Positions 817-61,266 of a stretch of 64,000 nucleotides of DNA are shown here, piece after piece (position 1 is the first letter of the stretch; every line of letters begins with the position of its first letter). The notes under the pieces were generated by a model. The model made no database searches. It saw only the letters and a list, made by a program, of their open reading frames with translations, and had not been told where the DNA came from. The translations under genes and the position numbers were made by a program. Source of the stretch: Mugil cephalus (Eukaryota; Chordata; Actinopteri; Mugiliformes; Mugilidae); the NCBI RefSeq assembly GCF_022458985.1, contig NC_061774.1:12390616-12454615 (forward strand), written 5' to 3'.

Positions 817-837
817 TTCAGCACCACGGACAGCAGA
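817..837 (+). promoter_or_regulatory. RE1/NRSE (REST-binding consensus)
   Basis: Contains TTCAGCACCACGGACAGC and matches 18 of 21 positions of the RE1 consensus (TTCAGCACCACGGACAGC then GCC). It lies about 90 bp past the donor of exon 930-3305. REST represses neuronal genes in non-neuronal cells. Confidence 0.85.
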
Positions 838-929
838 AAGATTTGAATGGATAAAACTGCCTCAAAAGTTGACACTTGCATTATCTAGCAATGTAGGTAT
901 TTCATAAACATTAAGCAAAAATACCCTAC

Positions 930-3305
930 CTTTTCTTTGTTGGGTAAAGTCTGTGTCCTGGTAAAAGTGTCTCCTTCGTTAATACTGATAAGCTCACCAT
1001 CTACAGGTGGAAACGGTGCAGGGAAAACCACTACATCACTCTTCAGTGTGTCTGAGCTGAAACACACGTCGTACTGCTGAGTAGATTTAGAGTAAGACCA
1101 GCTCCCGTCAGGGTGGGTGGTGATCATGGGGGCGCTGTACCTGCTGAAACTGTCTGTCCTGTGGCATTTGACAGCTATTAAACTGATGAGGCTCAGCAGA
1201 AAGATCACCGACACTGAGACAATGGCGATGAGCAGATACAGGTTCAAGTCAGAGAAGTTGTCCTCCTTTATAGGCACATGTCTGAACTGAGTCTGGATGT
1301 CAGCAGTGCTTTCAACCACCACCACTTCAATAGACACAGTAGCTGACAGGGAGGGTTCTCCATTATCAGAGACCAGCACCACCAAGGGGTGAGTTTTCAG
1401 ATCATTGTCACTCATTCTCCTCTTAGTCCTGATCTCCCCGGTGCTGGTTCCGATCCTGAACAGGTTGTTTCCTTTGGGCTCAGACAGGTGATAAGAAAGC
1501 AGAGCATTGTATCCAGAGTCTGCATCTACAGCCCTGATCTTAGCTACAAAGTATCCAGCTTCAGCAGAATAGGGGATGCTCTCACTATTAACGGAACCGT
1601 GCTCAGAATAAGGTGCAAGAATCGAGGGACTATTGTCATTCTCATCCATAATAAAAACATTTACAGTCACGTTGCTACTGAGCGGAGGAACACCAGAGTC
1701 TGTGGCCTGAACTTTGAACTGAAACGTTGTTAATTCCTCATAATTAAAAGACTGCAGACTAATAATGTCGCCAGTCTCTGAGTTTATATTAATCATTGTA
1801 GATAGTGGCAATGAGTTACTGTTACTTTGTAAAAATGAATAGCTCACCTGACCATTTTGATCAATATCTGCATCCAGTGCTGACACAGTTTTTAGAACTG
1901 CTCCTACTGGACTATTTTCTTTCATATAGACATTAATGACATCTTCTGTAAATAGAGGTTTGTTATCATTCACATCAGAGACATGTACATTAATAATGCT
2001 GTTGCTGGATAGAGGAGGGCTGCCTTCATCAGAAGCAGTGATACTAATGTTGTATTGAGGTGAACTCTCTCTGTCGAGAGGACCGTCAACAACCAACGAG
2101 TAGTAATTCTTATAATTTGACTCTAATTTAAAAGGAACATTATTGGAAATCTTACAGTTCACCAGTCCATTTTTTCCTCCATCTTTATCAAACACTGAAA
2201 CAAGAGCAATTGCGGTGCCAATGGACGCGTCTTCTTTCACTGTGTTCAACAGAGATGTCACTGAAATTTCAGGTTCATTGTCATTAACGTCTAAAACTTC
2301 AATCAATAATTTTGCATGTGAAGTCATAGGAGAGGAGGCTCCATCACTGGCTTGTACTCTTATCTCAAATGCATTATTCTCTTCAAAGTCGATATTCTTT
2401 GTGTTTGTTACAGTCCCAGTATTTCTGTCTATAGCAAACAGATTAGTTTGTTTCCCCTGGTCTATTTCCATAAATGAATATGATATTTGTCCGTTTTGAC
2501 CTGCATCTAAATCGGTAGCATTCAGAGTTATTATTGATGTTCCAATCTTCACGTTCTCATACACACTGGTTTTGTAAAGTGTTTGACTAAAAACGGGAGT
2601 ATTGTCATTAACATCTAAAACATTGATTGTAATAGTCATACTGCCGGATTTAGCAGGTGTTCCTCCGTCAGTGGCGGTCAGGGTGAATTTTATCGCGGTC
2701 TGTTTTTCTCTGTCTAAAACTTTCTGAAGCACTAATTCGGGAGTTATACTATCTCCTTTATTTGTAGCCAGAGAAAAATGCTCATTTTGACTAAGCTTAT
2801 AGGTATTCACTGAATTCCTTCCAACGTCTGCATCGTGAGCTCGCTTTAATAAAAATTTAGTCCCTGCTGCTGTGCTTTCAGTAATGTTAATTGTCTGAGA
2901 CCTGCTGAGAAACGATGGGGAATTATCATTCACGTCCAATATAATAATTTCAATGCGGTACAATTTCAAAGGGTTGTTAATAACGGCTTCTATAGTAAGT
3001 GAGCATTTCTGTTCATCGCCACAGAGTTCCTCTCGATCTATTCTCTCATTAACGTAGAGGACGCCAGTCTTCAGATTTACCTCGAAATATTTTCTCTTCG
3101 ATCCGGCAACGATCTGAAACATGCGGTGCTCCAAATCCTGGACATTGATATTCAAATCTTTGGCGATATTTCCGACAACAGTCCCTGGATTTACCTCCTC
3201 TGAGATGGAATAAGAGAGCTGCCCTTGCGCCGATTCCCAGCAACAATCCAGCACCACGAAGAACAGATAAATCCACACTGAGCTGATTCTTTCCGGCAAA
3301 TTCAT
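930..3305 (-). CDS. Gamma-type clustered protocadherin variable exon (A subgroup), most 3' exon in window
   Basis: The exon encodes 792 residues and ends at a splice donor (exon end AAAGAAAAG, then gtaggg). The cell-surface protein has a signal peptide (about 1-28), six cadherin repeats (about 29-672), a membrane helix (about 688-712) and a 78-residue cytoplasmic stub ending TLPNKEK. EC1 has the Cx5C motif of clustered protocadherins (C95 and C101, CGDEQKC) and the repeats carry DRE and DVNDN calcium motifs. By family knowledge it mediates homophilic neuronal recognition, with EC1-EC4 binding in trans. If unspliced, the frame reads 15 codons into the intron and stops near 885. EC1 belongs to the A subgroup, together with the exons ending at 4231, 10818 and 17193. 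Gamma rather than alpha is inferred from its position downstream and the cytoplasmic sequence; the constant exons are not in the window. Confidence 0.93.
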
Positions 3306-3423
3306 AATTACGACGTGACGCTATGTTACAGCAGGTATGAGATGAATGAAAGAAATATTTCAAATAAATATGCCGGCATGTTCACAACCAAACAAGACAA
3401 CCATTCTTTGTCGACTGACCTCG

Positions 3424-3436
3424 CTTTGTGACAAAG
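3424..3436. promoter_or_regulatory. Inverted CTTTGT-N-ACAAAG element, gamma 5' region
   Basis: CTTTGTGACAAAG, a near-perfect palindrome lying between the CSE and the ATG of exon 930-3305. The half-site ACAAAG resembles SOX and TCF/LEF cores. Confidence 0.5.
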
Positions 3437-3498
3437 ACCGTTTATGCATCATCCGCTGAATCAGGGAGGAGCCGTTACCGAGCAGATCGTATAAATGT

Positions 3499-3526
3499 GA
3501 TGGTCTGCATCGTCCCCACGTGGACA
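3499..3526 (-). promoter_or_regulatory. Gamma promoter CSE for exon 930-3305
   Basis: The plus strand reads GATGGTCTGCATCGTCCCCA then CGTGGACA, a close match to the shared 28-nt element found 194-239 bp upstream of every gamma start. Read in the sense direction its CCACGTGGGGAC core resembles a CTCF site and contains a CACGTG E-box. A TATA-like tttatac follows immediately in the sense direction (3489-3496). Confidence 0.85.
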
Positions 3527-4230
3527 TAAGTCATAACTACATCCCCCACCAGATATAATACCGCCGCACTGTTAAATATTGTGCATTTTCTTCATTGCTT
3601 TTTATGTTTAAAAATAAATGGATTGCCTACACAAACGCTAAGAAACCAATCCCCCCACCGCACCGCCAAAGGTTAACAAAAATCACTTTAGTAGCTTGAA
3701 TTATAAGTAACTGAAGTATGGCGGATTAACATGTCTCCTTTCCATTTTTAAGTGATGAGAAATGTAACACTATTAAATCTCATGGGGTCACTGAAAAAGG
3801 CCAAGTGATCCTACGTGTAAAACATTGAGCTGCAATTATTACCTAAGCTGACATGTATTTGTATACATGCTATGCTTAAAAACAATTCTGTTTCGGTTTT
3901 GTGAGTTCATCACACATTGATAAGGTACAATTCAGAACCACGGACAGCAATGCTGGCTTTACAGCACTTATCAACAGTGCAAAGAAAATCAGAAAAGAAA
4001 ACAGTCCCTTGATTTAAACCAGACAGTCTGTGAGATCAGGATGCAAACTTGGTGATAGTCGTTCTATGAGAAATTATTTCATATATAGTTCAAAGGTAGA
4101 GTTGGTGCAATTTACAGTCAGCGATTCTTGACAATGACACAGCACAAACTCATTAAAGTATCTTAAATTAAACTATTTCTTAACTATTTTTCCTCATGAA
4201 CAATGTGCCAAAGTGTCTATTTCATCTTAC
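3527..4230. other. Intergenic DNA between gamma exons
   Basis: AT-rich; apart from the RE1 at 3931 I see nothing further. Confidence 0.6.
3931..3951 (+). promoter_or_regulatory. RE1/NRSE (REST-binding consensus)
   Basis: TTCAGAACCACGGACAGC, 17 of 21 positions, 280 bp past the donor of the frameshifted exon. Confidence 0.78.
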
Positions 4231-6605
4231 CTTCTCTTTGTTGGGTAAAGTCTGTGTCCTGGTAAAAGTGTCTCCTTCATTAATACTGATCAGTTCACCA
4301 TCTACGGGTGGAAACGGTGCAGGGAAAACCACTACATCACTCTTCAGTGTGTCTGAGCTGAAACACACGTCGTACTGCTGAGTAGATTTAGAGTAAGACC
4401 AGCTCCCGTCAGGGTGGGTGGTGATCATGGGGGCGCTGTACCTGCTGAAACTGTCTGTCCTGTGGCATTTGACAGCTATTAAACTGATGAGGCTCAGCAG
4501 AAAGATCACCGACACTGAGACAATGGCGATGAGCAGATACAGGTTCAAGTCAGAGAAGTTGTCCTCCTTTATAGGCACATGTCTGAACTGAGTCTGGATG
4601 TCAGCGTGCTTTCAACCACCACCACTTCAATAGACACAGTAGCTGACAGGGAGGGTTCTCCACTATCAGAGACCAGCACCACCAAGGGGTGAGTTTTCAG
4701 ATCATTGTCACTCATTCTCCTCTTAGTCCTGATCTCCCCGGTGCTGGTTCCGATCTTGAACAGGTTGTTTCCCTTGGGCTCAGACAGATGATAAGAAAGC
4801 AGAGCATTGTATCCAGAATCTGCATCTACAGACCTGATCTTTGCTACAAAGTATCCAGCTTCTGCAGAATAGGGGATGCTCTCACTGTTAACAGAGCCGT
4901 GCTCAGAATAAGGCGCAAGAATCGAGGGACTGTTGTCATTTTCATCCAGGATTAAAACATTTACAGTCACGTTGCTACTGAGCGGAGGAACACCAGAGTC
5001 TGTGGCCTGAACTTTGAACTGAAACGTTTTTAATTCCTCATAATTAAAAGACTGAAGGCCGACAATTTCTCCAGTCTCTGAGTTGATGTTAATCATTGTA
5101 GAAAGTGGCAATGAGTTACTGTTACTTTGTAAAAATGAATAGCTCACCTGACCATTTTGATCGATATCTGCATCCAGTGCTGACACAGTTTTAAGAACTG
5201 CTCCTACTGGACTATTTTCTTTCACATAGACATTAACGACATCTTCTGTAAATAGAGGTTTGTTATCATTCACATCAGAGACATGTACATTAATAATGCT
5301 GTTGCTGGATAGAGGTGGGTTGCCTTCATCAGTAGCAGTGATACTAATGTTGTATTGAGGTGAACTCTCTCTGTCGAGAGGACCGTCAACAACCAACGAG
5401 TAGTAATTCTTATAATTTGACTCTAATTTAAAAGGAACATTATTAGAAATCTTACAGTTCACCATCCCATTTTTTCCTCCATCTTTATCAGACACTGAAA
5501 CAAGAGCAATTGCGGTGCCAATGGACGCGTCTTCTTTCACTGTGTTCAACAGAGATGTCACTGAAATTTCAGGTTTATTGTCATTAACGTCTAAAACTTC
5601 AATCAATAATTTTGCATGTGAAGTCATAGGAGAGGAGGCTCCATCACTGGCTTGTACTCGAATCTCAAAAGCGTTATTCTCTTCAAAGTCGATATTCTTT
5701 TTACTTGTAACTGTCCCAGTTCTTTCATCTATAGCAAACAGATCAGTTTGTTTTCCCCGGCCGACTTCACTAAATGAAAATGACACGTGCCCATTTTGAC
5801 CTACATCTAAATCACTGGCATTTAATGTGATTATTGATGTACCTATTTTTGCATTCTCATGTACACTGGCCTTATACAGCGTCTGACTGAATACGGGAGG
5901 ATTGTCGTTAATATCTAACACATTTATTATTATCGTCATGCTGCCTGATTTAGCTGGTGTTCCTCCGTCAATAGCAGTGAGTGTTAGTCGAATCACTGAC
6001 TGTTTTTCTCTGTCCAAAACTTTCCGCAGGACTAATTCAGGAGTTACGCTCTCCCCTTTATGCGTTTCAAGATTGAAGTGATCATTTTGATTAAGCTTGT
6101 AAGTGCTTACAGCATTTTTACCGACGTCTGCGTCGTGTGCTGGGTGCAAGGGAAATTTTGCCCCTGCTGCTGTGTTTTCACTAATGTTGATTACCTGTGA
6201 CGTGCTGAGAAATGATGGGGAATTATCATTCACATCTAATATTGTTATTTCAATACGGTACAGTTTCAGTGGATTGTTAATTACTGCCTCGACGCTGAGA
6301 GAACATCTTGCTTCATCGCCGCAGAGTTCCTCTCGGTCTATTCTCTCATTAACGTAGAGGACTCCGGTCTTGAGATTTACCTCGAAATATTTTCTCTTTG
6401 ATCCAGCAACGATCTGAAACATCCGGGGCTCCAGGTCCTGGACATTAATGTTGAGATCTTTGGCGATATTTCCGACAACAGTCCCCAGATTTACCTCCTC
6501 TGAGACGGAGTAAGAGAGCTGCCCTTGCGCCGATTCCCAGAAACAATCAAGCAAAAAGATGACGAGATATATCCACATAGACCTCGCTCTGCCCGGTACA
6601 TTCAT
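4231..6605 (-). pseudogene. Frameshifted gamma-type protocadherin variable exon (A subgroup)
   Basis: This is a full-length relative of the neighbouring A-subgroup exons but is 2375 nt long where they are 2376. On the plus strand the siblings read gtcagcagtgc near 4601-4606; here it is gtcagcgtgc, so one base is missing. Translation runs correctly through signal peptide and EC1-EC6 (about 660 residues), then shifts after VVVEST and stops at 4569. The membrane helix and cytoplasmic stub are still intact in the original frame (4231-4578), and the donor (gaag then gtaaga) is preserved. If expressed, it would give a secreted ectodomain and a transcript open to nonsense-mediated decay. The promoter element at 6838-6865 is intact, so the loss looks recent. 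A sequencing or assembly error, or a segregating allele, is also possible. Confidence 0.85.
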
Positions 6606-6837
6606 AATTCCGCCCGTCCGGAGAAATCACATCGACAAAACAGTTCGGTAAGGTCACAAAGAAGAACTAAACCGTTGTCAGAAATTAAACGAGATCATTT
6701 CAAAATGCAAAGCAATAATCGCCGTCACGTCGTCCTCTTTCAGTCTCTCCGTCTCTTTGTTTCGAGCGTCTGAGAAACATCATCATCCCTTGAAATTGGG
6801 AGGAGCCGCAAACAAGTGAAAAGGGAAACGAAAAAGT

Positions 6838-6865
6838 GATGGTCTACAATGTCCCCACGTGGACA
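6838..6865 (-). promoter_or_regulatory. Gamma promoter CSE for the frameshifted exon
   Basis: The plus strand contains GGTCTACAATGTCCCCACGT, the consensus form, 233 bp upstream of the start at 6605. It is intact although the exon is frameshifted. A GGGAGGAGCC box (GC-box-like, CGGCTCCTCCC in sense) lies between it and the exon near 6799. Confidence 0.85.
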
Positions 6866-7309
6866 TTTGCTACAACTACACTCAGTATGACACAATATTT
6901 CCGCCGATGTATTTAAACAGATCCTAATAATGTAATAATTACTCTGTAAGATTTCCCACTGTTTATCATTTTTAAACAAGTTAGACCGACTGTGCTCAAA
7001 CGTCATAGACATTTTTAATTTCTTTACATCTGCACATCGAATCTCTTTAAAATTTGCACTAAAAATTGAGTAACCTGGCTCCCAATTAAAGTTCAATGAA
7101 ATACCCAATATCCTACTGACTATTTTCTACAGGTACTCCACGATGAGATCAGTGTAATGAATACATTTTTAAAAGTCAACTTAACCAATGTTAAAAATTA
7201 AATATATCATGATCATTGCTTTCTTTGTTAAAAATGTACAACAATGGATAGGATTTTGATGAATATACTAAAAATTTCCTCAGGAGGAACTCATATTCAC
7301 ACACTCAAG

Positions 7310-7330
7310 ATCAGAACCTTGGAAAGTTTA
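7310..7330 (+). promoter_or_regulatory. Decayed RE1-like element
   Basis: ATCAGAACCTTGGAAAG matches only 12 of 21 RE1 positions, but sits at the equivalent place past a B-type exon and is paralogous to 13871. It has probably lost REST binding. Confidence 0.4.
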
Positions 7331-7482
7331 AATAACAAAATGGCAACCAGGCTACTCCAAACATATTTGATTGTCATTTCAAGGATCACAACATCTTTTG
7401 ATTTCTTTTTTTTTTTCTTTTTTTTTCCCATGAGTTATAATATTTTGCTTTTTCAAAATAAGATACATGACTATGTTCTTAC

Positions 7483-9870
7483 CTTTTCTTTGTTGGGTAA
7501 GGTCTGTGTCCTGGTAAAAGTGTCTCCTCCATTAATACTGATCAGCTCACCATCTACAGGTGGAAACGGTGCAGGGAAAACCACTACATCACTCTTCAGT
7601 GTGTCTGAGCTGAAACACACGTCGTACTGCTGAGTAGATTTAGAGTAAGACCAGCTCCCGTCAGGGTGGGTGGTGATCATGGGGGCGCTGTACCTGCTGA
7701 AACTGTCTGTCCTGTGGCATTTAACAGCTATTAAACTGATGAGGCTCAGCAGAAAGATCACTGACACTGAGGCAATGGCGATGAGCAGATACAGGTTCAA
7801 GTCAGAGAAGTTGTCCTCCTTTATAGGCACATGTCTGAGCTGAGTCTGGATGTCAGCAGTGCTTTCAACCACCACCACTTCAATAGACACAGTAGCTGAC
7901 AGGGAGGGTTCTCCATTATCAGAGACCAGCACCACCAAGGGGTGAGTTTTCAGATCATTGTCACTCATTCTCCTCTTAGTCCTGATCTCCCCGGTGCTGG
8001 TTCCGATCCTGAACAGGTTGTTTCCTTTGGGCTCAGACAGGTGATAAGAAAGCAGAGCGTTGTATCCAGAGTCTGCATCTACAGCCCTGATCTTTGCTAC
8101 AAAATATCCAGCTTCAGCAGAATAGGGGATGTTCTCACTATTAACAGAGCCATGCTCAGAATAAGGTAGCAGAATAGAGGGATTGTTGTCATTTTCATCC
8201 AGGATAAAAACATTTACAGTCACATTGCTGCTGAGTGGAGGAACACCAGAGTCTGTGGCCTGAACTTTGAACTGAAACGTTTGTAACTCTTCATAGTTAA
8301 AAGACTGAAGACTGATGATGTCTCCCGTCTCTGAGTTTATATTAATCATTGTAGATAGTGGCATTGTGTTACTGTTATTTTCAACAATTGTGTACGTCAC
8401 TTGGGCATTTTGATCAATGTCTGCATCAAGTGCAGATACTCTTTTTATAACTGCTCCAATTGGACTGTTTTCCTTTAAATAAACATTAAATACAGAGTCT
8501 GAAAAACGAGGAGAATTGTCATTGACGTCAGAAACATGAACAGTAAGATCCCTGGTGCTTGTGAGAGCTGGTGTTCCATCATCTGTGGCTGTGATGGTGA
8601 CATTGTAATATGAATTTGTCTCTCTGTCTAGTTGCCCATGTACTACCAAAGAGTAATAATTTTTGTAGTTTGTTTCCAACTTAAAGGGACTTTCATTTTT
8701 AACACTACAATGCACTATTCCATTTCTGCCTCCATCTCTGTCAAGGACTGACACAAGTGCAATAGCAGTGCCTGTTTTGGCATCCTCTTTTACTGTGTTA
8801 CTCAGAGTTGTTACAGATATTTCAGGACTATTGTCATTTAAATCCACCACCTCTATTAGTACTTTACACTGTGCTGTCATTGGAGGAGAGCCTTTATCAG
8901 CAGCCTGAACTCGGATTTCGAAAGCAGGATGCTCTTCAAAGTCAATCTTACCTTTAACTGTCAATAATCCGGTCTGCTCATCAATTTGAAATATATTAAG
9001 AACATGGTCTTGATCTTTGCTGCTCAGTGAATACGTAATCTCCCCGTTTGGCCCTTCATCGTCGTCTGTTGCCGTTATTGTTATGACTGAACTACCAACC
9101 GGTGCGTTTTCACTAACGCTTGTTTTATACAAAGGTTTGGTAAATATCGGGACGTTATCATTATTGTCCAAGACATTGATTATTATCTGTGACGTTCCGG
9201 ACTTTGGAGGTGTTCCTCCATCCACTGCAGTCAGCGTGAGTTTTATTACAGGTTGTTTTTCTCGGTCTAACGGTTTCTGGAGGACTAATTCCGCAGACAC
9301 ACTTTCTCCTTTGTTCACTGATAATACAAAATTGTCATTAGTATTTAGCTTGTACGTACTGATGCCATTCTTTCCAACATCGGCATCATAGGCCGATAAC
9401 AGGAGGAATTTAGTCCCAGGTAACGTGCTTTCCGCTATATCGATATTCTGCGAATTGGTACTGAAAGACGGATAATTGTCATTAACATCTAGAATATTTA
9501 CTTCTAATCGATAAAGCTTTAACGGAGCGTTTATTACAGCCTCGACGTTCACTGTGCATTTCGTTGCCTTCGCACACAGCTCCTCTCGGTCTATTCTGTC
9601 ATTGACAAAGAGAACACCCGTCTTCAGATTTACCTCGAAATATTTTTTCTTTGATCCGGGAACGATTTGAAACATCCGAGACTCCAGCTCATGTACACCG
9701 AGGTTAAGGTCCTTTGCTATATTTCCTACAGAAGTCCCTGTATTTACTTCTTCGGATATGGAGTAGGAGAGCTGTCCAGACACCGCTTCCCAATAACAGT
9801 CCAGCAGCACAAATAGCACGTATGCCACCACAGAACTCCTCTTATTTGAAGACATAATCCGATCAGACAT
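7483..9870 (-). CDS. Gamma-type clustered protocadherin variable exon (B subgroup, copy 1)
   Basis: The 796-codon exon ends at a gtaaga donor. The first ATG gives [11 protein letters not shown]; the internal ATG (9855) would give a signal peptide closer in length to the other subgroups, so the start is uncertain by five codons. Six EC repeats are followed by a helix and the common TLPNKEK stub. EC1 ([20 protein letters not shown], Cx5C as CAKATKC) defines the B subgroup. It differs from the other B exon (14026-16413) at only about 16 residues across the whole protein, so the two probably have nearly the same binding specificity. The linker after EC2 reads DNNDN instead of DVNDN. The promoter element at 10072-10099 differs from that of A exons. 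Confidence 0.93.
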
Positions 9871-10071
9871 GAAAACAGCACGTAAACAGGTCCAAAAGAT
9901 GTCGAGTATTGATGGAAGCTATGCTCCCTTTTCATCTAAATTGTCCACAGTGCAGATCATCCCCTGGCTTTCTCTCTGTGCTTCTGCGTCCCTTTGTGTT
10001 AAAACCCGACAAGACATAATTACGTCTATATTCTGGGAGGGGCATCAGGATGTGATTTAAATATTCAGTTG

Positions 10072-10099
10072 AATGGTCTACATTGCCACCTTATGGCTT
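10072..10099 (-). promoter_or_regulatory. Gamma promoter CSE, B-type variant
   Basis: AATGGTCTACATTGCCACCT then TATGGCTT, 202 bp upstream of the start at 9870. The TGGTCTAC half is conserved, but the E-box half is replaced by GCCACCTTATGGC, whose reverse complement fits the CTCF core well (11 of 14 IUPAC positions). Confidence 0.8.
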
Positions 10100-10574
10100 T
10101 ATACACACATTACAATTCAAAGGATGGGAAAACAGAATTGTATCATGAAGACTACACAATAGTGCACAATATGTTTTACAATGTTATTTTAAAAATAATT
10201 ATCATGCAAATATCGGGTTGCTTTAATGGAAAAAAAAATATTAATCTTATCTTGGAATGTCTTATTATTATTATGTCTTATGTATTTTTCAAAACTGTAG
10301 TCATCAGACTTGTTTGCAATTGACATGTTTACTCCAGTGACTAGGGCATAGAGGGGGAACTTAACACCAGGATATTTAAATTCCACTTTAATATAGACAC
10401 AAACTGTATCTCAACAACAGTGTAGCCTAAGGGAGAACTACAAACTCCAAAGACTGCAAACCATTAAGCATTCAGTCCAAACATTTCTGTGTTTTTGCCA
10501 TAGTCAGGGAAATCGTTACAAATCACACTAACCACACACCATATGAAGTAGAATGAAATTGAATTATATCTGCG

Positions 10575-10576
<2 letters not shown>

Positions 10577-10633
<57 letters not shown>
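10577..10633. repeat. (TG)n microsatellite
   Basis: A 57-nt TG tract in the 3' flank of exon 10818-13193, next to the RE1 at 10706. The paralogous site at 17.0 kb has one too; the site at about 735 does not. Confidence 0.95.
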
Positions 10634-10635
<2 letters not shown>

Positions 10636-10705
10636 AATTTGTGCTTTCTATGCGCAGATTTCAGTGCAGCTCCACTACTAAGTGCTGACCCACTATGTTC
10701 TCTTC

Positions 10706-10726
10706 TTCAGCACCACGGACAGCAGC
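10706..10726 (+). promoter_or_regulatory. RE1/NRSE (REST-binding consensus)
   Basis: TTCAGCACCACGGACAGC and a final C; 19 of 21 positions. It lies about 90 bp past the donor at 10818. Confidence 0.87.
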
Positions 10727-10817
10727 AAGATTTGAATGGATAAAACTGCCTCAAAAGTTGACACTTGCATTATCTAGCAATGTTGTATTTTATGAACATT
10801 AAGCAAAAATGCCCTAC

Positions 10818-13193
10818 CTTTTCTTTGTTGGGTAAAGTCTGAGTCCTGGTAAAAGTGTCTCCTTCGTTAATACTAATCAGCTCACCATCTACAGGTGGAA
10901 ACGGTGCAGGGAAAACCACTACATCACTCTTCAGTGTGTCTGAGCTGAAACACACGTCGTACTGCTGAGTAGATTTAGAGTAAGACCAGCTCCCGTCAGG
11001 GTGGGTGGTGATCATGGGGGCGCTGTACCTGCTGAAACTGTCTGTCCTGTGGCATTTGACAGCTATTAAACTGATGAGGCTCAGCAGAAAGATCACCGAC
11101 ACTGAGGCAATGGCGATGAGCAGATAGAGGTTCAAGTCAGAGAAGTTGTCCTCCTTTATAGGCACATGTCTGAACTGAGTCTGGATGTCAGCAGTGCTTT
11201 CAACCACCACCACTTCAATAGACACAGTAGCTGACAGGGAGGGTTCTCCACTATCAGAAACCAGCACCACCAAGGGGTGAGTTTTAAGATCATTGTCACT
11301 CATTCTCCTCTTAGTCCTGATCTCCCCAGTGCTGGTTCCGATCCTGAACAGGTTGGTTCCTTTGGGCTCAGACAGATGATAAGAAAGCAGAGCATTGTAT
11401 CCAGAATCTGCATCTACAGCCCTGATCTTAGCTACAAAGTATCCAGCTTCTGCAGAATAGGGGATGTTCTCACTGTTAATGGAGCCGTGCTCAGAATAAG
11501 GTGCAAGAATCGAGGGACTGTTGTCATTTTCATCCAGGATTAAAACATTTACAGTCACGTTGCTACTGAGCGGAGGAACACCAGAGTCTGTGGCCTGAAC
11601 TTTGAACTGAAACGTTTTTAATTCCTCATAATTAAAAGACTGAAGGCCGACGATTTCTCCAGTCTCTGAGTTGATGTTAATCATTGTAGAAAGTGGCAAT
11701 GAGTTACTATTATTTTGTAAAAATGAATAGCTCACCTGACCATTTTGATCAATATCTGCATCCAGTGCTGACACAGTTTTTATAACTGCTCCTACTGGAC
11801 TATTTTCTTTCACATAGACATTAACGACCTCTTCTGTAAATAGAGGTTTGTTATCATTCACATCAGAGACATGTACATTAATAATGCTGTTGCTGGATAG
11901 AGGCGGACTTCCCTCATCTGTAGCAGTGATACTAATGTTGTATTGAGGTGAACTCTCTCTGTCGAGTGGACCGTCAACAATCAACGAGTAGTAATTCTTA
12001 TAATTTGACTCTAATTTAAAAGGAACATTATTAGAAATCTTACAGTTCACCAGTCCATTTTTTCCTCCATCTTTATCAGACACTGAAACAAGAGCAATTG
12101 CGGTGCCAATGGACGCGTCTTCTTTCACAGTGTTCAACAGAGATGTTACTGAAATTTCAGGTTTATTGTCATTAACGTCTAAAACTTCAATCAATAATTT
12201 TGCATGTGAAGTCATAGGAGACAAGGCTCCATCACTGGCTTGTACTCTTATCTCAAAAGCATTGTTCTCTTCAAAGTCGATATTCTTTTTACTTGTTACT
12301 GTCCCAGTTTTTTCATCTATAGCAAACAGATCAGTTTGTTTTCCCCGGCCGACTTTACTCAATGAATATGACACGTGTCCATTTTGACCTGCGTCTAAAT
12401 CACTTGCATTTAATGTGATTATTGATGTACCTATTTTTGCATTCTCATGTACACTGGCCTTATACAGCGTCTGACTGAATACGGGAGGATTGTCGTTAAT
12501 ATCTAACACATTTATTATTATCGTAATGCTGCCTGATTTAGCTGGTGTTCCTCCGTCAATAGCAGTAAGTGTGAGTCGAATCATTGACTGTTTTTCTCTG
12601 TCCAAAACTTTCCGCAGGACTAATTCAGGAGTTACAGTTTCTCCTCTTTGTGTTTCGAGAGAGAAATGATCATTTTGATTAAGCTTGTATGTATTTACAG
12701 TGTTTTTACCGACGTCTGCATCTTCAGCAGGATCCAGCGGAAATTTAGCCCCTGCTGCCGTGTTCTCAGTAATGTCAATTACTTGTGATGCGCTGAGAAA
12801 TGATGGGGAATTATCATTAACATCTAATACGACAATTTCAATACGGTACAGTTTCAGCGGATTATTAATTACTGCTTCGAGGCTGAGGGAACATTTTGCT
12901 TCATCGCCGCAGAGTTCCTCTCGATCTATTCTCTCACTAACGTAGAGGACTCCGGTCTTGAGATTTACCTCGAAATATTTTCTCTTTGATCCAGCAACGA
13001 TCTGAAACATGCGGGGCTCCAGGTCCTGTACATTGATGTTGAGATCTTTGGCGATATTTCCGACAACAGTCCCCAGATTTACCTCCTCTGAGACGGAGTA
13101 AGAGAGCTGCCCTTGCGCCGATTCCAAGCAACAATACAGCAAAAAAATGACGAGATATATCCACATAGACCTCGTTCTGCCCGGTACATTCAT
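10818..13193 (-). CDS. Gamma-type clustered protocadherin variable exon (A subgroup)
   Basis: The exon is 792 codons and ends at a gtaggg donor; unspliced, it reads on to a stop near 10770. The signal peptide ([14 protein letters not shown]...) and the 5' flank are nearly identical to those of the frameshifted exon at 4231-6605, its tandem duplicate about 6.6 kb away. Domain order is signal peptide, EC1-EC6, helix, stub. EC1 carries Cx5C as CGDEAKC. This exon retains the base missing from the 4231-6605 copy, so it shows the intact form of that lineage. An RE1 element lies about 90 bp beyond the donor (10706-10726), next to a TG microsatellite. The promoter element is at 13426-13453. Confidence 0.93.
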
Positions 13194-13425
13194 AATTCCG
13201 CCCGTCCGGAGAAATCACATCGACAAAACAGTTCGGTAAGGTCACAAAGAAGAACTGAACCGTTGTCAGAAATTACACGAGATCATTTCAAAATGCAAAG
13301 CAATAATCGCCGTCACGTCGTCCTCTTTCAGTCTCTCCGTCTCTTTGTTTCGAGCGTCTGAGAAACATCATCATCCTTTGGAATTGGGAGGAGCCGCAAG
13401 CCAGTGAAAAAGGAAACGAAAAAGT

Positions 13426-13453
13426 GATGGTCTACAATGTCCCCATGTGGACA
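13426..13453 (-). promoter_or_regulatory. Gamma promoter CSE for exon 10818-13193
   Basis: GGTCTACAATGTCCCCATGT follows GAT; it differs from the 6838 copy only by CATGTG for CACGTG. It lies 233 bp upstream of the start, the same spacing as its duplicate. Confidence 0.85.
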
Positions 13454-13870
13454 TTTTCTACAACTACACTCAGTATGACACTATTTCCTCCGATGAATTA
13501 AAACAGATCCCAATACAAAATAATGTAATAATTACTCTGCAAGATTTCCCACTATTTATCATTTTTCAACAAGTTAGACCGACTGTGCTCAAACGTCATA
13601 GACATGTTTAATTTCTTCACATCTACTCGTCGAATCTCTTTAAAATTAGACTTAAATAAAATACCCAATATCCTACTGATGATTTTCTACAGGTACCCCA
13701 CGATGAGATCGGTGTAATGAATACATTCTTAAAAATGAACTTAACCAATGTTAAAAATTAAATATATCATGATCATTGCTTTCATTGTTAAAAAGTGTAC
13801 AACAATAGATAAAACTTGGATGAATATGCTAACAATTTTCTCAGGGGAAACTCATGATCACACACTCAAG

Positions 13871-13891
13871 ATCAGAACCTTAGACAGTTTA
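13871..13891 (+). promoter_or_regulatory. Decayed RE1-like element
   Basis: ATCAGAACCTTAGACAG, 12 of 21 positions, the paralogue of the element at 7310, past the second B-type exon. Confidence 0.4.
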
Positions 13892-14025
13892 AATAAGGAG
13901 ATGGCAACCAGGCTACTCCAAACATATTTGATTGTCATGTCAAGTTAAACATCATGACATCTTTTGATTTTTTTTTTCCATGAGCTACAGCATTTTCAAA
14001 ATAAGATGCATGACTATGTTCTTAC

Positions 14026-16413
14026 CTTTTCTTTGTTAGGTAAAGTCTGTGTCCTGGTAAAAGTGTCTCCTTCGTTAATACTGATCAGCTCACCATCTAC
14101 AGGTGCAAACGGTGCAGGGAAAACCACTACATCACTCTTCAGTGTGTCTGAGCTGAAACACACGTCGTACTGCTGAGTAGATTTAGAGTAAGACCAGCTC
14201 CCGTCAGGGTGGGTGGTGATCATGGGGGCGCTGTACCTGCTGAAACTGTCTGTCCTGTGGCATTTGACAGCTATTAAACTGATGAGGCTCAGCAGAAAGA
14301 TCACTGACACTGAGACAATGGCGATGAGCAGATACAGGTTCAAGTCAGAGAAGTTGTCCTCCTTTATAGGCACATGTCTGAACTGAGTCTGGATGTCAGC
14401 AGTGCTTTCAACCACCACCACTTCAATAGACACAGTAGCTGACAGGGAGGGTTCTCCACTATCAGAAACCAGCACCACCAAGGGGTGAGTTTTCAGATCA
14501 TTGTCACTCATTCTCCTCTTAGTCCTGATCTCCCCGGTGCTGGTTCCGATCCTGAACAGGTTGTTTCCTTTGGGCTCAGACAGGTGATAAGAAAGCAGAG
14601 CATTGTATCCAGAGTCTGCATCTACAGCCCTGATCTTAGCTACAAAGTACCCAGCTTCAGCAGAATAGGGGATGTTCTCACTATTAACAGAGCCGTGCTC
14701 AGAATAAGGTTGCAGAATCGATGGATTGTTGTCATTTTCATCCAGGATAAAAACATTTACAGTCACGTTGCTGCTGAGTGGAGGAACACCAGAGTCTGTG
14801 GCCTGAACCTTAAACTGAAACGTTTGTAACTCTTCATAGTTAAAAGACTGAAGACTGATGATGTCTCCAGTCTCTGAGTTTATATTAATCATTGTAGATA
14901 GTGGCATTGTGTTACTGTTATTTTCGACAATTGTGTAGGTTACTTGGGCATTTTGATCAATATCTGCATCAAGTGCAGATACTCTTTTTATAACTGCTCC
15001 AATTGGACTGTTTTCCTTTAAATAAACATTAAATACAGAGTCTGAAAAACGAGGAGAATTGTCATTGACGTCAGAAACATGAACAGTAAGATCCCTGGTG
15101 CTTGTGAGAGCTGGTGTTCCATCATCTGTAGCTGTGATGGTGACATTGTAATATGAATTTGTCTCTCTGTCTAGTTGCCCATCTACTACCAACGAGTAAT
15201 AATTTTTGTAGTTTGTTTCCAACTTAAAGGGACTTTCATTTTTAACACTACAATGCACTATTCCATTTTTGCCTCCATCTCTGTCAAGGACTGACACGAG
15301 TGCAATAGCAGTGCCCGTTTTGGCATCCTCTTTTACTGTGTTACTCAGAGTTGTTACAGATATTTCAGGACTATTGTCATTTAAATCCACCACCTCTATT
15401 AGTACTTTGCACTGTGCTGTCATTGGAGGATAGCCTTTATCAGCAGCCTGAATTCGGATTTCGAAAGCAGGATGCTCTTCAAAGTCAATCTTACCTTTAA
15501 CTGTCAATAATCCGGTCTGCTCATCAATTTGAAATATATTAAGAACATGGTCTTGATCTTTGCTGCTCAGTGAATACGTAATCTCCCCGTTTGGCCCTTC
15601 ATCGTCGTCTGTTGCCGTTATTGTTATGACTGAACTACCAACCGGTGCGTTTTCACTAACGCTTGTTTTATACAAAGGTTTGGTAAATATCGGGACATTA
15701 TCATTAACATCTAAGACACTGATTATTATCTGTGATGTTCCGGACTTTGGAGGTGTTCCTCCATCCACTGCAGTCAGCGTGAGTTTTATTACAGGTTGTT
15801 TTTCTCGGTCTAACGGTTTCTGGAGGACTAGTTCCGCAGACACACTTTCTCCTTTGTTCACTGATAATACAAAATTGTCATTAGTATTTAGCTTGTACGT
15901 ACTGATGCCATTCTTTCCAACATCGGCATCATAGGCCGATAACAGGAGGAATTTAGTACCAGGTAACGTGGTTTCCGCTATGTCGATATTCTGCGAATTG
16001 GTACTGAAAGACGGATAATTGTCATTAACATCTAGAATATTTACTTCTAATCGATAAAGCTTTAACGGAGCGTTTATTACAGCTTCGACGTTCACTGTGC
16101 ATTTCGTTGCCTTCGCACACAGCTCCTCTCGGTCTATTCTGTCATTGACAAAGAGAACACCCGTCTTCAGATTTACCTCGAAATATTTTTTCTTTGATCC
16201 GAGAACGATTTGAAACATCCGAGAGTCCAGCTCATGTACACCGAGGTTTAGGTCCTTTGCTATATTTCCGACAGAAGTCCCCGTATTTACTTCTTCGGAT
16301 ATGGAGTAGGAGAGCTGTCCAGACACCGCTTCGAAATAAAAGTCCAGCAGCACAAATAGCACGTATGCCACCACAGAACTCCTCTTATTTGAAGACATAA
16401 TCCAATCAGACAT
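14026..16413 (-). CDS. Gamma-type clustered protocadherin variable exon (B subgroup, copy 2)
   Basis: This is the tandem duplicate of the exon at 7483-9870, exactly 6543 bp away at both ends, with 796 codons and a gtaaga donor. Visible differences from copy 1 include FYFEA for CYWEA in the signal region, a regular DVNDN in place of DNNDN after EC2, KGYPP for KGSPP in EC3, and APFAP for APFPP in the stub. Trans-binding repeats EC1-EC4 are almost unchanged, so redundancy with copy 1 is likely. The first ATG is used here; MSSNKR five codons later is an alternative. The promoter element at 16615-16642 contains GCCACCTTATGGC on the plus strand, a good CTCF-like core when read in the sense direction. 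Confidence 0.93.
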
Positions 16414-16614
16414 GAAACCAGCACGTAAACAGGTCCAAAAGATGTCGAGTATTGACGGAAGCTATGCTCCCTTTTCATCAAAATTGTCCACAGTGCAGAT
16501 CATCCCCCGGCTTTCTCTCTTTGCTTCTGCGTCCCTTTGTGTTAAAACCCGACAAGACATAATTACGTCTATATTCTGGGAGGGGCATCAGGACGTGATT
16601 TAAATATTCAGTTA

Positions 16615-16642
16615 TATGGTCTTCAGTGCCACCTTATGGCTT
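16615..16642 (-). promoter_or_regulatory. Gamma promoter CSE, B-type variant, second copy
   Basis: TATGGTCTTCAGTGCCACCT then TATGGCTT, 202 bp upstream of the start at 16413, the duplicate of the element at 10072. The CTCF-like GCCACCTTATGGC part is unchanged; the other half has two substitutions. Confidence 0.8.
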
Positions 16643-16920
16643 TATACACACATTACAATTCAAAGGATGGGAGAACTGTATCATGAAGACTACACAATAG
16701 TGCAGAATATGTTTTACATTGTTATTTTAAAAATAATTATCATGCAAATATTGGGTTGCTTAGGCAGAAACTGTATCTCAACAACAGTGTACTACAAACT
16801 ACAAACTCCAAAGACTGCAAACCATTAAGCATTCAGTCCAAACATTTCTCACTTCAGGGAAATTGCTACAAATCACACTAACCATACACCATATGAAGTA
16901 GAATGAAATTGAATTATATC

Positions 16921-16943
16921 TGTGTGTGTATATATATATATAC

Positions 16944-17008: not shown

Positions 17009-17010
<2 letters not shown>

Positions 17011-45212: not shown

Positions 45213-47564
<2,352 letters not shown>

Positions 47565-47793
47565 AGTCGATCAAAAAAAAAACTGAATTAAATGAAAAGG
47601 GAAGTCAGACATCAAACTTGCGCTCGCATCAACACACGTTTGACAAAATTTGTGGGCTTTTGGAATTAATGTTGAAGGCGTCAAGATGTATAGTCATCGA
47701 TGCGAAAACACAAACGCACCCTCCCCGTAATAGCGTCCAACTACACTGACGTACAGGATGTTGAACCAAGAGTCGTTCATGTTCACAAGCAGT

Positions 47794-47823
47794 GACACCA
47801 TCCGAGCAAACGTTATAACGCAC
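47794..47823 (-). promoter_or_regulatory. Alpha promoter CSE for exon 45213-47564 (diverged)
   Basis: The plus strand reads GACACCATCCGAGCAAACG, compared with GACACCATGCGAT in the other alpha promoters. It is 230 bp upstream of the start, inside the 416-bp gap between two exons. Confidence 0.65.
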
Positions 47824-47980
47824 ATACATTTCAGCGAAATACAAATATTAGAGGAAAGGGTCACTATTGTATTTAAACGTTTCTGTTTCCTGATAAGCCA
47901 AGATATAATTAAATTACTGGTAAGACGTGATCTTGACTGAAAAATGGACATGTGCTATATATCCCACAACTTTGTCTTAC

Positions 47981-50338
<2,358 letters not shown>

Positions 50339-50556
50339 GATGGACAGAAAACAAAATAATTCCAGGGTTTGTTATTGCGTGATTAAGAAACATCAGTTAG
50401 CCTCCACCCTTTTCAAACTGCGATCCATCGATAACACATCACGAGACAAAGACCTAGGTTCCCGTTCAAGCGTTTAACAAGAAAGCCGAAAATTCTGGGC
50501 TGGACCAAGTGTAGATCACGGGAAAAAAAACTCCACACACTATTTGCTGTTATGCC

Positions 50557-50586
50557 GACACCATGCGATCCACAGTGTTACTGCAG
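50557..50586 (-). promoter_or_regulatory. Alpha promoter CSE for exon 47981-50338
   Basis: GACACCATGCGATCCACAGT followed by GTTACTGCAG on the plus strand, 219 bp upstream of the start. In the sense direction the ATGGTGTC part resembles the AGGTGGC half of a CTCF site. Confidence 0.82.
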
Positions 50587-50615
50587 CACACTGTATTAAA
50601 CAAACAACAGCAACA

Positions 50616-50649
50616 AATAATAATAATAATAATAATAAATATATATATA
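50616..50649. repeat. (AAT)n/(AT)n microsatellite
   Basis: AAT repeats running into AT repeats, 44 bp from the RE1 at 50693. Confidence 0.9.
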
Positions 50650-50692
50650 GTTCGAAGCTTCAATTGAAACAGCTCTGTTATCTGTAACATTG

Positions 50693-50713
50693 TTCAGCAC
50701 CACAGACAGCGAC
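50693..50713 (+). promoter_or_regulatory. RE1/NRSE (REST-binding consensus)
   Basis: TTCAGCACCACAGACAGCG, 19 of 21 positions, in the alpha group, about 110 bp upstream of the CSE at 50557. Confidence 0.87.
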
Positions 50714-51718
50714 ACTTGCAACTGTAGCCGGGCGCCTTTTCATAAGTCAGACAGCAAACAATGTGACGCATTCCTAGAACTGTGTGAACACCCGCATTTA
50801 CGGCAGACGCTTGTGACTATCAAACAACAAACAGTGATATGTCTATGTAAAAACAAATGTGCATAATGTCAATGTGGCACCCGCGACGTTGTAGCGCAGC
50901 AGAGTTATTTATTATACTACGACGTGGTATTGCAGGCGATATATGATTATTTAACCCCTTTGTGTCGTATTTGAATGGGGGAAATCTGCCCTCTTTAAAC
51001 CCTAGTTATATTGCGATATGCGTTCTCACCAGTAGGTGGCATGTCAGCCTAGTCTAAAGTGGGAAGCACCCCAATCTAAACAACAAACGCGGTTAACCAT
51101 CCACCCTTGTCTTTATGTATATAAAGTGATTCATGACTGCAGATGAGGCAGATAACTTAATGAACTCTTGAATATTATGACGAGTGTAACATTGTCACAA
51201 AAGTTATTTTTGCATTGTATCCTTTATAGTAAAAGCAAGTCAGTCATAATGCAGAACCGACAGGGTAACCACAAGGGAATCCGTTATGCATCCAAGAATG
51301 ACTTATGAATATAAAATAGAAACTTGTGGAGCAGCTGGTTGGAACTTGCTCTCATTCATCAGCTAGAAACCATTAATATGCTACTTTAAATAAATAAATA
51401 AATAAAAAGCCACACTCAAAGAAGAATCTATTTTTCCAAACAAGCTGATCAACAGGTTTGTAGGTAATATGTACATCAATGCAAAGACTTTTGCAATAAC
51501 CATACAATAAAACTTTAAACCAACACATTAAATCAACCATCTCTTCAACACCCAACCTCCTCATTATCCAGTAATGAATATATGCTGTTAACTTGCACAC
51601 CTTGTCTATGTTGGGATACTGAACTGGTGGTGTGACTGAGTAGGTCACTTCATACACATATAGATTTAAAGGATCTGCCTCTATTGTGTCACTGTTATTT
51701 TTGCTGAAGTCATCTTAC
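50714..51718. other. Intergenic DNA between alpha exons
   Basis: No gene. Contains the strong CTCF motif at 51029 and an (AAAT)n run near 51390. Confidence 0.6.
51029..51042 (+). promoter_or_regulatory. Candidate CTCF site, opposite orientation to promoters
   Basis: CCAGTAGGTGGCAT matches 13 of 14 positions of the CTCF core CCASYAGRKGGCRS. It is in the intergenic region between two alpha exons and faces toward higher coordinates. Confidence 0.6.
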
Positions 51719-54076
<2,358 letters not shown>

Positions 54077-54277
54077 GATCAAAACAAAAGCAATCGGTTG
54101 CCCGCGTGATTAACAATGACGTCGCAAGCATTTAACCTAGCGGAGCCAGGCATGCATCTTATGTGGGTCCTTTCAAAGATGTTACAACTTCAACACGGTA
54201 TATATGAAGACGGCAGCCAGCCATTAAACGATTATGTCAGCAACGAACTGAGCGCGATGAGGAGGAGGAACTACAAT

Positions 54278-54292
54278 GCGATGACGACAAAC
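54278..54292 (-). promoter_or_regulatory. Alpha core-promoter element (TGACGAC)
   Basis: GCGATGACGACAAAC lies about 26 bp on the exon side of the CSE. The same 15-nt element recurs at 57228, 60283 and 63824 at similar spacing. The TGACG core is CREB/ATF-like, but a role in initiation is equally possible. Confidence 0.55.
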
Positions 54293-54318
54293 TGGGGACC
54301 TTATTTTGCAAACACACT

Positions 54319-54346
54319 GACACCATGCGATGTAGATGTTCACTAC
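54319..54346 (-). promoter_or_regulatory. Alpha promoter CSE for exon 51719-54076
   Basis: GACACCATGCGATGTAGATG then TTCACTAC, 243 bp upstream of the chosen start. Confidence 0.82.
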
Positions 54347-54665
54347 AACAACTCCCTTTGTAGAAATATTTAATATGTAGCATTATTACAATATTCTTAA
54401 TGTATTCATTTTTACTCTATCCGGAGAAGTTGTGGTGCAAAATGTTCGACACTGTAACAACTGCTACACATGAAACTAATTGTAATTGTATGTACAAGGA
54501 TACAAATAGGAATGACTACCAGTAAAATCAAAATTATCTAAATTCTCTCAGAAAACTGAAAGTTATCAGTTTAATATCAAGTGAGAAGGGAAGTGTGATT
54601 GATGAACAATTAAACAAATAATCTGGTAGTAAAACCAAGAAAATGTTTTCACAACAACCCCTTAC

Positions 54666-57023
<2,358 letters not shown>

Positions 57024-57227
57024 TGTTACAACGGAAATAATCAGCAATCATTCACGAAAGTAAAAAGGCATTGCAGAGATCCAATACGAGACGTTCTCTC
57101 GTGAGAATATTCCCGCTCTTACTACGACAGATCCGAGGAAAAACAGAGTATTTCCAAAAGCAGCCGTAATCTCAGAAACGACTGGTTGTACCGAACTGGT
57201 GGAGCTATCAAGAGGCTGAAGCAAAAC

Positions 57228-57242
57228 GCAGTGACGACCAGC
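57228..57242 (-). promoter_or_regulatory. Alpha core-promoter element (TGACGAC)
   Basis: GCAGTGACGACCAGC, about 30 bp on the exon side of the CSE at 57273. Confidence 0.55.
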
Positions 57243-57272
57243 TAATAAATTGCTCACTTCTTCCATTATACT

Positions 57273-57302
57273 GACACCATGCGATCTAAAACTTCACTGC
57301 AG
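57273..57302 (-). promoter_or_regulatory. Alpha promoter CSE for exon 54666-57023
   Basis: GACACCATGCGATCTAAAAC then TTCACTGCAG, 250 bp upstream of the MEQ start. Confidence 0.82.
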
Positions 57303-57608
57303 TCATTCAAATGCAGTAGTACATTAGATGAAGTAGAGGATGTATATGCGTGTTTACTTTTACTTGCTTGTGAGAACTACCCTAAAATTGAGGGGTGGGT
57401 AGAAATTAATGAGATAGCATAGTCGTTTTACAATTAGAGGATGAGGGGGGAAGATATGTTCAGTTGTTTTCCAAACATGTAGATTTTATGTGATTACTTA
57501 ATGTCAGAAAAAAAGGTATGAAAAAGTAACACTCATACGATGGAAGTAAATTATTACTCTTACTTATGACTCATTAACAAAGACTACAATCCAGAGCAAA
57601 CGAACGAG

Positions 57609-57629
57609 ATCAGAACCATGGACAGCGAT
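57609..57629 (+). promoter_or_regulatory. RE1-like element
   Basis: ATCAGAACCATGGACAGCG, 16 of 21 positions, about 85 bp past the donor at 57713. Confidence 0.68.
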
Positions 57630-57651
57630 TCCCTCTTTTTCCCAGCTACAG

Positions 57652-57699
57652 TTTTTTTTTTTTTTTTGTTGTTGTTGTTGTTGTTTTGTTTTGTTTTTC
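57652..57699. repeat. Poly-T / (GTT)n tract
   Basis: T-run followed by GTT and GTTTT repeats, directly beyond the splice donor of exon 57713-60070. On the sense strand it is A-rich. Confidence 0.9.
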
Positions 57700-57712
57700 A
57701 AATATATCTTAC

Positions 57713-60070
<2,358 letters not shown>

Positions 60071-60282
60071 GATCAAACTCGAAATCATCAGTTATACATC
60101 GCAAAACCAATACATATGGTGTAAAAACAGAATTCGCGACTTTGCTGATCGCAAATATTCCTTCTTCCACCTTCCCCCAGAAAAAACGTTAACAGCAAGG
60201 GTATTCACAACGTCGACAATAATAACAGACAATGCTGTGGTTATACTGAAACGAGAACGTTTTCGAGGGGTGGGACTAAAAT

Positions 60283-60297
60283 GCAATGACGACGAGC
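60283..60297 (-). promoter_or_regulatory. Alpha core-promoter element (TGACGAC)
   Basis: GCAATGACGACGAGC, 29 bp on the exon side of the CSE at 60327; identical to the copy at 63824. Confidence 0.58.
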
Positions 60298-60326
60298 CTT
60301 GTGCTGCTGACATTTGATAGTACACT

Positions 60327-60356
60327 GACACCATGCGACCTAATGTCTCGCTGCAT
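60327..60356 (-). promoter_or_regulatory. Alpha promoter CSE for exon 57713-60070
   Basis: GACACCATGCGACCTAATGT then CTCGCTGCAT, 257 bp upstream of the MEQ start; duplicated almost unchanged at 63868. Confidence 0.83.
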
Positions 60357-61266
60357 ACAAGACTGACGAAGTTTAATCACATTCATGGTAAATACTCAGC
60401 TGAATGCAGATTTCCAAGAATTCATAGCTTAGTTTTTGGAAATGGGGGAAGGTGATATACTCAGTAATAGACTGGACCTTAAATTGAGTGTTAAGTATTA
60501 ACCGAGCTGTTTTAAGCTTGTGGCCAAGGAGTGTATCATAGCCTACATTTAACAATTGCCCCTCACCTCCTTCCTTCCCACGACCATATGTAAGAGTAAA
60601 AACAAAAAGAAATGCATGATGGACATAGCAGGGACAGCAATACTGTTTTGCAAATGCAGCAAATTCAGCTATCTGAACATTGTTAGTTCTCATGTTCTGG
60701 GTTATTACATGAACATTAACTGCATGGTAATGACGTGACAAGCAGGTAACCTTGACTATCTTTTATTTTACTAAAACTATTCACTTATTGCCAAGATTTT
60801 AACATGAAAAGATGTTAAACAGTCAACCATTGAATAATAGTAAGTTTAATATTTAGAAAAGCTCTGTCTGTAATGTAATTCTGTTAAAACCAATGAACAC
60901 ATGCTGGGGAAAAAAGGATTAATTTGATCGAAACCATGGACAGCGACTGAGACCAATTGGCATTACATTTGTAGTTTGTTCACAATACACACCTCTGTGG
61001 ATAGTTTTTTGTTGTGAATCTTTAGTTTGATATGGTTTAGTCCTGTAAGAAGTTGTTTTTTTTCTGCTCATGCAATAGATGATTACAAGAGTTATAATTT
61101 GTTTCTTATAAAAAAAATATCAACACAAGTAAGTGAAGACATCTGCGATTGTTCATTTAAAATTGTGTTAGTTATCAGCATACCGGTTTTCCACAAACCA
61201 TAACCACTGAAATAGATGTGAAGTAATTCTTGTTAGGGAAAAAAGGGTTGTTTGAAGCTGTCTTAC
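60357..61266. other. Intergenic DNA between alpha exons
   Basis: No gene. About 90 bp next to the CSE are duplicated at 63898-64000. The rest is AT-rich and holds the RE1-like element at 60927. Confidence 0.6.
60927..60947 (+). promoter_or_regulatory. RE1-like element
   Basis: ATCGAAACCATGGACAGCG, 15 of 21 positions. The right half (ATGGACAGCG) is nearly perfect and the left half degraded. It lies past the donor at 61267. Confidence 0.6.

What the first reader, a model, noticed from the sequence alone, without database searches (positions are those of the whole stretch)
817..60947. RE1/REST elements repeated through the array, all in one orientation
Nine good-to-excellent RE1 matches (15-19 of 21 positions) at 817, 3931, 10706, 17081, 20351, 27317, 50693, 57609 and 60927, plus three weak ones, lie between exons. 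All are on the plus strand, antisense to the genes. They seem to have multiplied with the exon units. Multiple neuron-restrictive silencer elements in Pcdh clusters are, as I recall, already described; the strictly uniform orientation and unit-by-unit distribution here is the point of interest.
Basis: partly seen in the sequence, partly recalled or inferred. Interest (0 to 1): 0.72.

Follow-up and report, generated by a model that had tools for sequence, protein, structure and literature searches.

The report
REST silencer sites in protocadherin array
A probably fish cluster of neuronal adhesion genes carries well-formed binding sites for the neuron-gene repressor REST in most gaps between its exons, all facing the same way; such sites in these clusters are already described, and the shared orientation is what head-to-tail gene duplication would leave behind.

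Summary
Eight RE1/NRSE sites lie within one mismatch of the core TCAGCACCnnGGACAG, all on the plus strand (shuffle expectation 0.07). The ninth, 60927, is mediocre (16.5 bits; simulations reach 22.8). Of 11 gapped half-site pairs above 17 bits, 8 have the canonical 2-bp spacer. The window holds 15 clustered-protocadherin variable exons, all on the minus strand, each ending in a splice donor. Eight of nine RE1s sit 83-319 nt past a donor, one 1005 nt past; none of the nine is in the 15-kb gap between exon subfamilies. CSE-like promoter elements face the other way. Copying with exon units is shown for three strong sites (817, 10706, 17081) and for the paralogous weak pair 7310/13871; the other six have unrelated flanks. 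So the nine amount to about seven lineages, and inheritance of orientation through head-to-tail duplication is the simplest account. Multiple NRSEs in Pcdh clusters are published (Tan et al. 2010, not readable here; summarised in PMC3601302). A sound instance of a known arrangement; modest interest.

The parts
817..837 (+). RE1, 92 nt 3' of splice donor of exon e1
   Evidence: same flank lineage as 10706 and 17081
3931..3951 (+). RE1, 279 nt 3' of donor of e2, 626 nt upstream of ATG of e1
7310..7330 (+). weak, probably decayed RE1, 152 nt 3' of donor of e3
   Evidence: 12.3 bits, chance level alone; paralogous to 13871, the two differing in the right half
10706..10726 (+). RE1 (best score), 91 nt 3' of donor of e4
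13871..13891 (+). weak, probably decayed RE1, 134 nt 3' of donor of e5
   Evidence: 10.3 bits, chance level alone
17081..17101 (+). RE1, 91 nt 3' of donor of e6
20351..20371 (+). RE1, 246 nt 3' of donor of e7, 783 nt upstream of ATG of e6 (19568)
27317..27337 (+). RE1, 168 nt 3' of donor of e9
50693..50713 (+). RE1, 355 nt upstream of ATG of e11, 1005 nt 3' of donor of e12
57609..57629 (+). RE1, 83 nt 3' of donor of e14
60927..60947 (+). weaker RE1 (16.5 bits), 319 nt 3' of donor of e15
   Evidence: not found by the stricter scans
885..29896 (-). nine variable exons e1-e9 (subfamily B), each ending in AAG|GTA(A/G)G
   Evidence: e1, e7 and e9 scanned against Pfam
45183..63654 (-). six variable exons e10-e15 (subfamily A), each ending in GAG|GTAAG
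   Evidence: e10, e12 and e15 scanned against Pfam
29885..45212 (.). 15.3-kb spacer between the two exon subfamilies, with no RE1 above 15 bits (a weak one at 30233)
   Evidence: recalled constant-exon motifs not found

Best explanation
These are canonical REST/NRSF binding sites (RE1/NRSE) in a clustered-protocadherin variable-exon array, probably of a fish. In non-neuronal cells and progenitors REST would bind them and, with its co-repressors, keep nearby variable-exon promoters off; most sites lie 83-319 nt past one variable exon's splice donor and 0.35-0.84 kb upstream of the next exon's start codon, beyond its CSE-like promoter element. Loss of REST in neurons would free the promoters for CTCF-dependent choice. 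The sites face one way because exon-plus-spacer units were duplicated and recombined head-to-tail in one orientation; some copies then decayed or were lost. Shown here: motif, spacer, enrichment, position, orientation, and duplication of one strong lineage and one weak pair. Inferred: REST binding, silencing, decay of the weak pair, and inherited orientation for the lineages whose flanks no longer align.
For: 8 sites against 0.07 expected; 9 against 0 by strand above 15 bits. Among half-site pairs with spacers 0-20, the 2-bp spacer gave 8 hits against 0.05 expected, all other spacers together 3 against about 1.9 (20 simulations), fitting the published canonical spacer of 2 bp (PMC8096226 passage). 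Zebrafish has 1,102 sites at the core stringency genome-wide (PMC3531662 passage); with a recalled genome of about 1.4 Gb that is about 0.05 per 64 kb. 0 of 9 in the 15.3-kb spacer, 9 of 9 in 12.7 kb of short spacers (P 0.0008, or 0.004 for 7 lineages; post hoc). Across 7 lineages cores average 78% identity and flanks 24% (partly circular, since sites were chosen by motif). 817/10706/17081 share flanks, as do 7310/13871. Published: deleting NRSEs from Pcdh constructs shifted expression from neural to ubiquitous in transgenic Xenopus tadpoles (Tan et al. 2010 as summarised in PMC3601302, passage); [quoted passage not shown]
Against: No binding or expression data for this sequence; species not identified. 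Six of nine strong sites have no alignable flanks, so common descent is unproven for them. 4 of 15 exon 3' flanks have no site and 2 only weak ones. RE1 presence is not clearly clustered on the exon tree: 4 changes, 114 of 500 shuffles as low; strong/weak/none taken together, 15 of 200 as low. The matrices were hand-made.
Confidence: 0.85

Rival explanations
1. The orientation is itself selected: REST binds directionally, and its placement opposite to the gene-sense CSE/CTCF-like elements matters for blocking promoter-enhancer looping or for limiting read-through past the variable-exon donor.
For: About 7 flank-distinct lineages all on + (two-sided coin-flip P 0.016); CSE-like elements in the opposite orientation at 15 of 15 exons (no shuffle control); each NRSE is bound in only one orientation, and REST is reported to act by preventing CTCF binding (PMC8096226).
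Against: Duplication of same-orientation units gives the same pattern without selection; flank divergence does not prove independent origin. I recall that NRSEs silence in either orientation; a search for that wording returned no paper, so this is recall. Distance from the ATG varies, 355-839 nt (with the e6 start corrected).
Confidence: 0.08
2. The sites were spread by a transposable element carrying an RE1.
For: TE-spread RE1s are known in vertebrates (recalled, no call).
Against: Among 7 lineage representatives (21 pairs) 40-bp flanks average 24% identity, maximum 34%, about chance. The one ungapped flank above 45% outside the two copied groups is 57609 with weak 13871, 50% left and 30% right.
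Confidence: 0.02
3. The 21-mers are chance or serve another purpose, such as intronic splicing signals near the donors.
For: 8 of 9 lie within 319 nt of a splice donor.
Against: Occurrence far above chance with the two-half-site architecture; distance to the donor is not fixed (83-319, 1005) and 4 of 15 exons lack any copy.
Confidence: 0.05

Closest known systems
NRSEs scattered through the fugu Pcdh cluster (Tan et al. 2010, NAR 38:4985; not held, known here from citations and a review)
   Same: Multiple canonical NRSEs in a clustered Pcdh array; a review figure legend places the fugu sites in promoters, i.e. in non-coding DNA as here (PMC3601302 passage).
   Different: Here sites lie mostly in the donor-proximal part of the spacer (mean fraction 0.29 over 7 lineage representatives, P 0.03, post hoc). 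Whether that paper reports orientation is unknown to me.
Human PCDH alpha/gamma NRSEs, sites a, b and c (PMC8096226; introduction, section on the NRSE repertoire, and passages read)
   Same: Repeated, paralogous REST sites in clustered Pcdh genes; locations and orientations are drawn in its Figure 1B (legend read).
   Different: The human sites are inside the variable coding exons; the nine strong sites here are in non-coding spacers.
CSE / CTCF-binding sites of Pcdh promoters
   Same: Also one-orientation arrays repeated per exon: forward CBSs at promoters in human, gene-sense CSE-like elements here.
   Different: Another factor and motif; found for every exon at a nearly fixed -218 to -263, unlike the RE1s.

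Membership tests
canonical RE1/NRSE | left half TTCAGCACC, 2-bp spacer, right half GGACAGCGCC (recalled consensus) | tested here: met
   8 sites within 1 mismatch of the core, with the spacer control; 60927 fails that stringency (3 core mismatches by inspection)
canonical RE1/NRSE | bound by REST and silences in non-neuronal cells | not testable with these tools
   needs ChIP/CUT&RUN and reporters
clustered protocadherin locus | tandem large exons with cadherin repeats, transmembrane segment and a 3' splice donor | tested here: met
   15 exons; 6 of 15 scanned against Pfam, all 6 with cadherin repeats and Cadherin_C_2; 15 of 15 donors; best PDB sequence matches Pcdh-10, Pcdh gamma B4 and Pcdh alpha 7 for the two exons searched
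clustered protocadherin locus | per-exon promoter with CSE | tested here: inconclusive
   best gene-sense CTCF-like hit lies at -218 to -263 in 15 of 15 and beats the antisense best each time, but scores are 5.2-14.0 bits on a hand-made matrix, the best hit in a fixed interval was taken and no shuffle was run. In favour: ATGGTGTC at the same place in 6 of 6 subfamily-A exons and a trailing AGACC in 8 of 9 subfamily-B exons
clustered protocadherin locus | shared constant exons | tested here: inconclusive
   recalled constant-exon motifs not found in the window, apart from two poly-lysine low-complexity hits; the exons may lie beyond its left edge
TE-derived RE1 | shared repeat sequence around the sites | tested here: not met
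   flank identity averages 24% between lineages

The most novel reading that the evidence does not exclude
RE1 orientation opposite to the CSE/CTCF elements is a selected part of Pcdh promoter architecture, so that REST bound upstream of each CTCF site in a fixed polarity sets whether that promoter can enter the enhancer loop.
Probability: 0.07. Interest if true: 0.65.

Novelty: new member of a known kind. Interest (0 to 1): 0.24.

Why it matters
It adds a clear instance of likely REST control over clustered protocadherins, with duplication, probable decay and absence of sites within one array. If polarity were functional it would connect REST to the CTCF loop rules of promoter choice, but the data here are explained without that.

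Tried and rejected
Independent orientation as a nine-fold coincidence: rejected as a null, because three sites are copies of one and the units all face one way. TE spread: rejected on unrelated flanks. Non-canonical RE1s: 3 of 11 gapped hits had other spacers (10, 17, 3), about chance. RE1 presence following exon phylogeny (first 360 residues of each of 15 exons): not clearly clustered. Homology of 27317 with 7310/13871: e9 shares promoter-side spacer sequence with e3 and e5 but the RE1 regions do not align, so not claimed. Anchoring to the donor: post hoc, P 0.03, computed on 7 of the 9 strong sites (817 and 17081 left out as copies of the 10706 lineage). Searches used an inflated start for e6 (19823); from the methionines listed I took 19568, used (20351 is then 783, not 528, nt upstream). 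Papers: Tan et al. 2010 is not held (one search was a wrongly guessed DOI). Five library searches (one search listed 20 of 46 and one search listed 12 of 14 papers) showed me no paper on NRSE orientation in fish Pcdh clusters, judged by titles, abstracts and the passages I opened; that is no proof that none exists. The rest of the array in the window's own genome could not be examined.

Full report
Observation. The nine 21-mers are at the stated coordinates on the plus strand. A consensus scan with up to 3 mismatches returns 8, all plus, with 0.07 expected and 0 of 100 shuffles reaching 8; the 16-base core with one mismatch returns the same 8. A hand-built 21-position matrix gives 9 plus and 0 minus above 15 bits, with a mean of 0.25 over both strands in 60 simulations. 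The ninth, 60927, scores 16.5; the best simulated score was 22.8, so it rests on context. From 12 to 15 bits there are 1 plus and 8 minus hits; the 8 are one identical coding 21-mer in subfamily-B exons. Letting the half-site spacer vary from 0 to 20 gave 11 hits above 17 bits: 8 with the canonical spacer of 2, where 0.05 were expected, and 3 with others, where about 1.9 were expected.

Setting. Fifteen long minus-strand exons encode protocadherin ectodomains; six of them were scanned against Pfam and two against PDB sequences. Two subfamilies, e1-e9 and e10-e15, differ in their 3' ends, and each exon ends at a splice donor (15 of 15). Exon e2 lacks one base relative to e4, which shifts its frame. 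Recalled alpha and gamma constant-exon motifs were not found in the window, apart from two poly-lysine low-complexity hits. The species is not identified; short spacers and layout suggest a fish, which is inference.

Position. Eight of nine strong sites lie 83-319 nt past a splice donor, one (50693) 1005 nt past. They are 355-839 nt upstream of the next ATG in the eight cases where that exon is in the window (with the e6 start corrected). The best gene-sense CTCF-like hit before each ATG lies at -218 to -263 in 15 of 15 exons and beats the antisense best each time. The hit was taken as the best in a fixed interval without a shuffle control, so its weight rests on the shared sequence: ATGGTGTC in 6 of 6 subfamily-A exons and a trailing AGACC in 8 of 9 subfamily-B exons. 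The RE1s are all antisense to the genes and, in those eight cases, lie upstream of this element. None of the nine is in the 15.3-kb spacer between subfamilies; a weak match lies there at 30233.

Origin. Comparison of spacers with the RE1s masked shows spacers 1, 4 and 6 homologous around the RE1, and spacers 3 and 5 homologous throughout. Spacers 3/5 and 4/6 together suggest a two-unit tandem duplication, e3-e4 and e5-e6; the tree agrees for e3/e5 (100/100) but joins e4 with e2 (81/84) rather than with e6, so exon sequence has recombined as well. Spacer 1 matches the first 578 nt of spacer 4 past the donor and then stops matching, although 929 nt of spacer 1 are in the window; in that pair the RE1 goes with the 3' end of the exon. 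The weak sites of spacers 3 and 5 differ from each other in the right half; that they are decayed is inference. The remaining six strong sites have flanks at about chance identity. The nine therefore amount to about seven lineages. On the exon tree RE1 presence needs 4 changes, as low in 114 of 500 shuffles; the three labels strong, weak and none taken together are as low in 15 of 200.

Mechanism. The most likely reading is ordinary REST silencing of Pcdh promoters outside neurons. [quoted passage not shown] Uniform orientation follows from head-to-tail unit duplication, as it would for the CSE-like elements.

Comparison. Multiple NRSEs in Pcdh clusters are known for fugu, mouse and human. Human NRSEs of the alternate exons lie in coding sequence; here, as in the review's description of fugu, they are non-coding. 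I could not read Tan et al. 2010 and cannot say whether it reports orientation.

Verdict. Observation confirmed; interpretation partly supported; a good instance of a known regulatory arrangement.

Noticed in passing
4605 (exon e2, 4231-6605): Exon e2 lacks one base relative to paralogue e4, which shifts its frame near the membrane-proximal part: pseudogene, allele or assembly error.
   Followed up: partly
1428, 4728, 7981, 14524, 17691, 21116, 24933, 28004: An identical coding 21-mer on the minus strand, with an RE1-like left half and a poor right half, at 8 of 9 subfamily-B exons (e4 has a one-base variant at 11316); whether it corresponds to the exonic mammalian sites was not tested.
   Followed up: no
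32523-32551 and 32758-32772: In the 15-kb spacer, RE1-like half-sites with a 10-bp gap (about chance level) some 200 bp from the best CTCF-like match of the window, which faces opposite to the promoter elements (4% of 200 simulated spacers reach its score); a weak hint of an HS5-1-like enhancer.
   Followed up: partly
6606-17192: Spacers suggest a two-gene tandem duplication, e3-e4 and e5-e6, while the tree joins e4 with e2 (81/84): a mosaic history.
   Followed up: partly
10577-10633 and 16946-17008: Long TG repeats at the same place in the paralogous spacers of e4 and e6, absent as a long run in that of e1.
   Followed up: no
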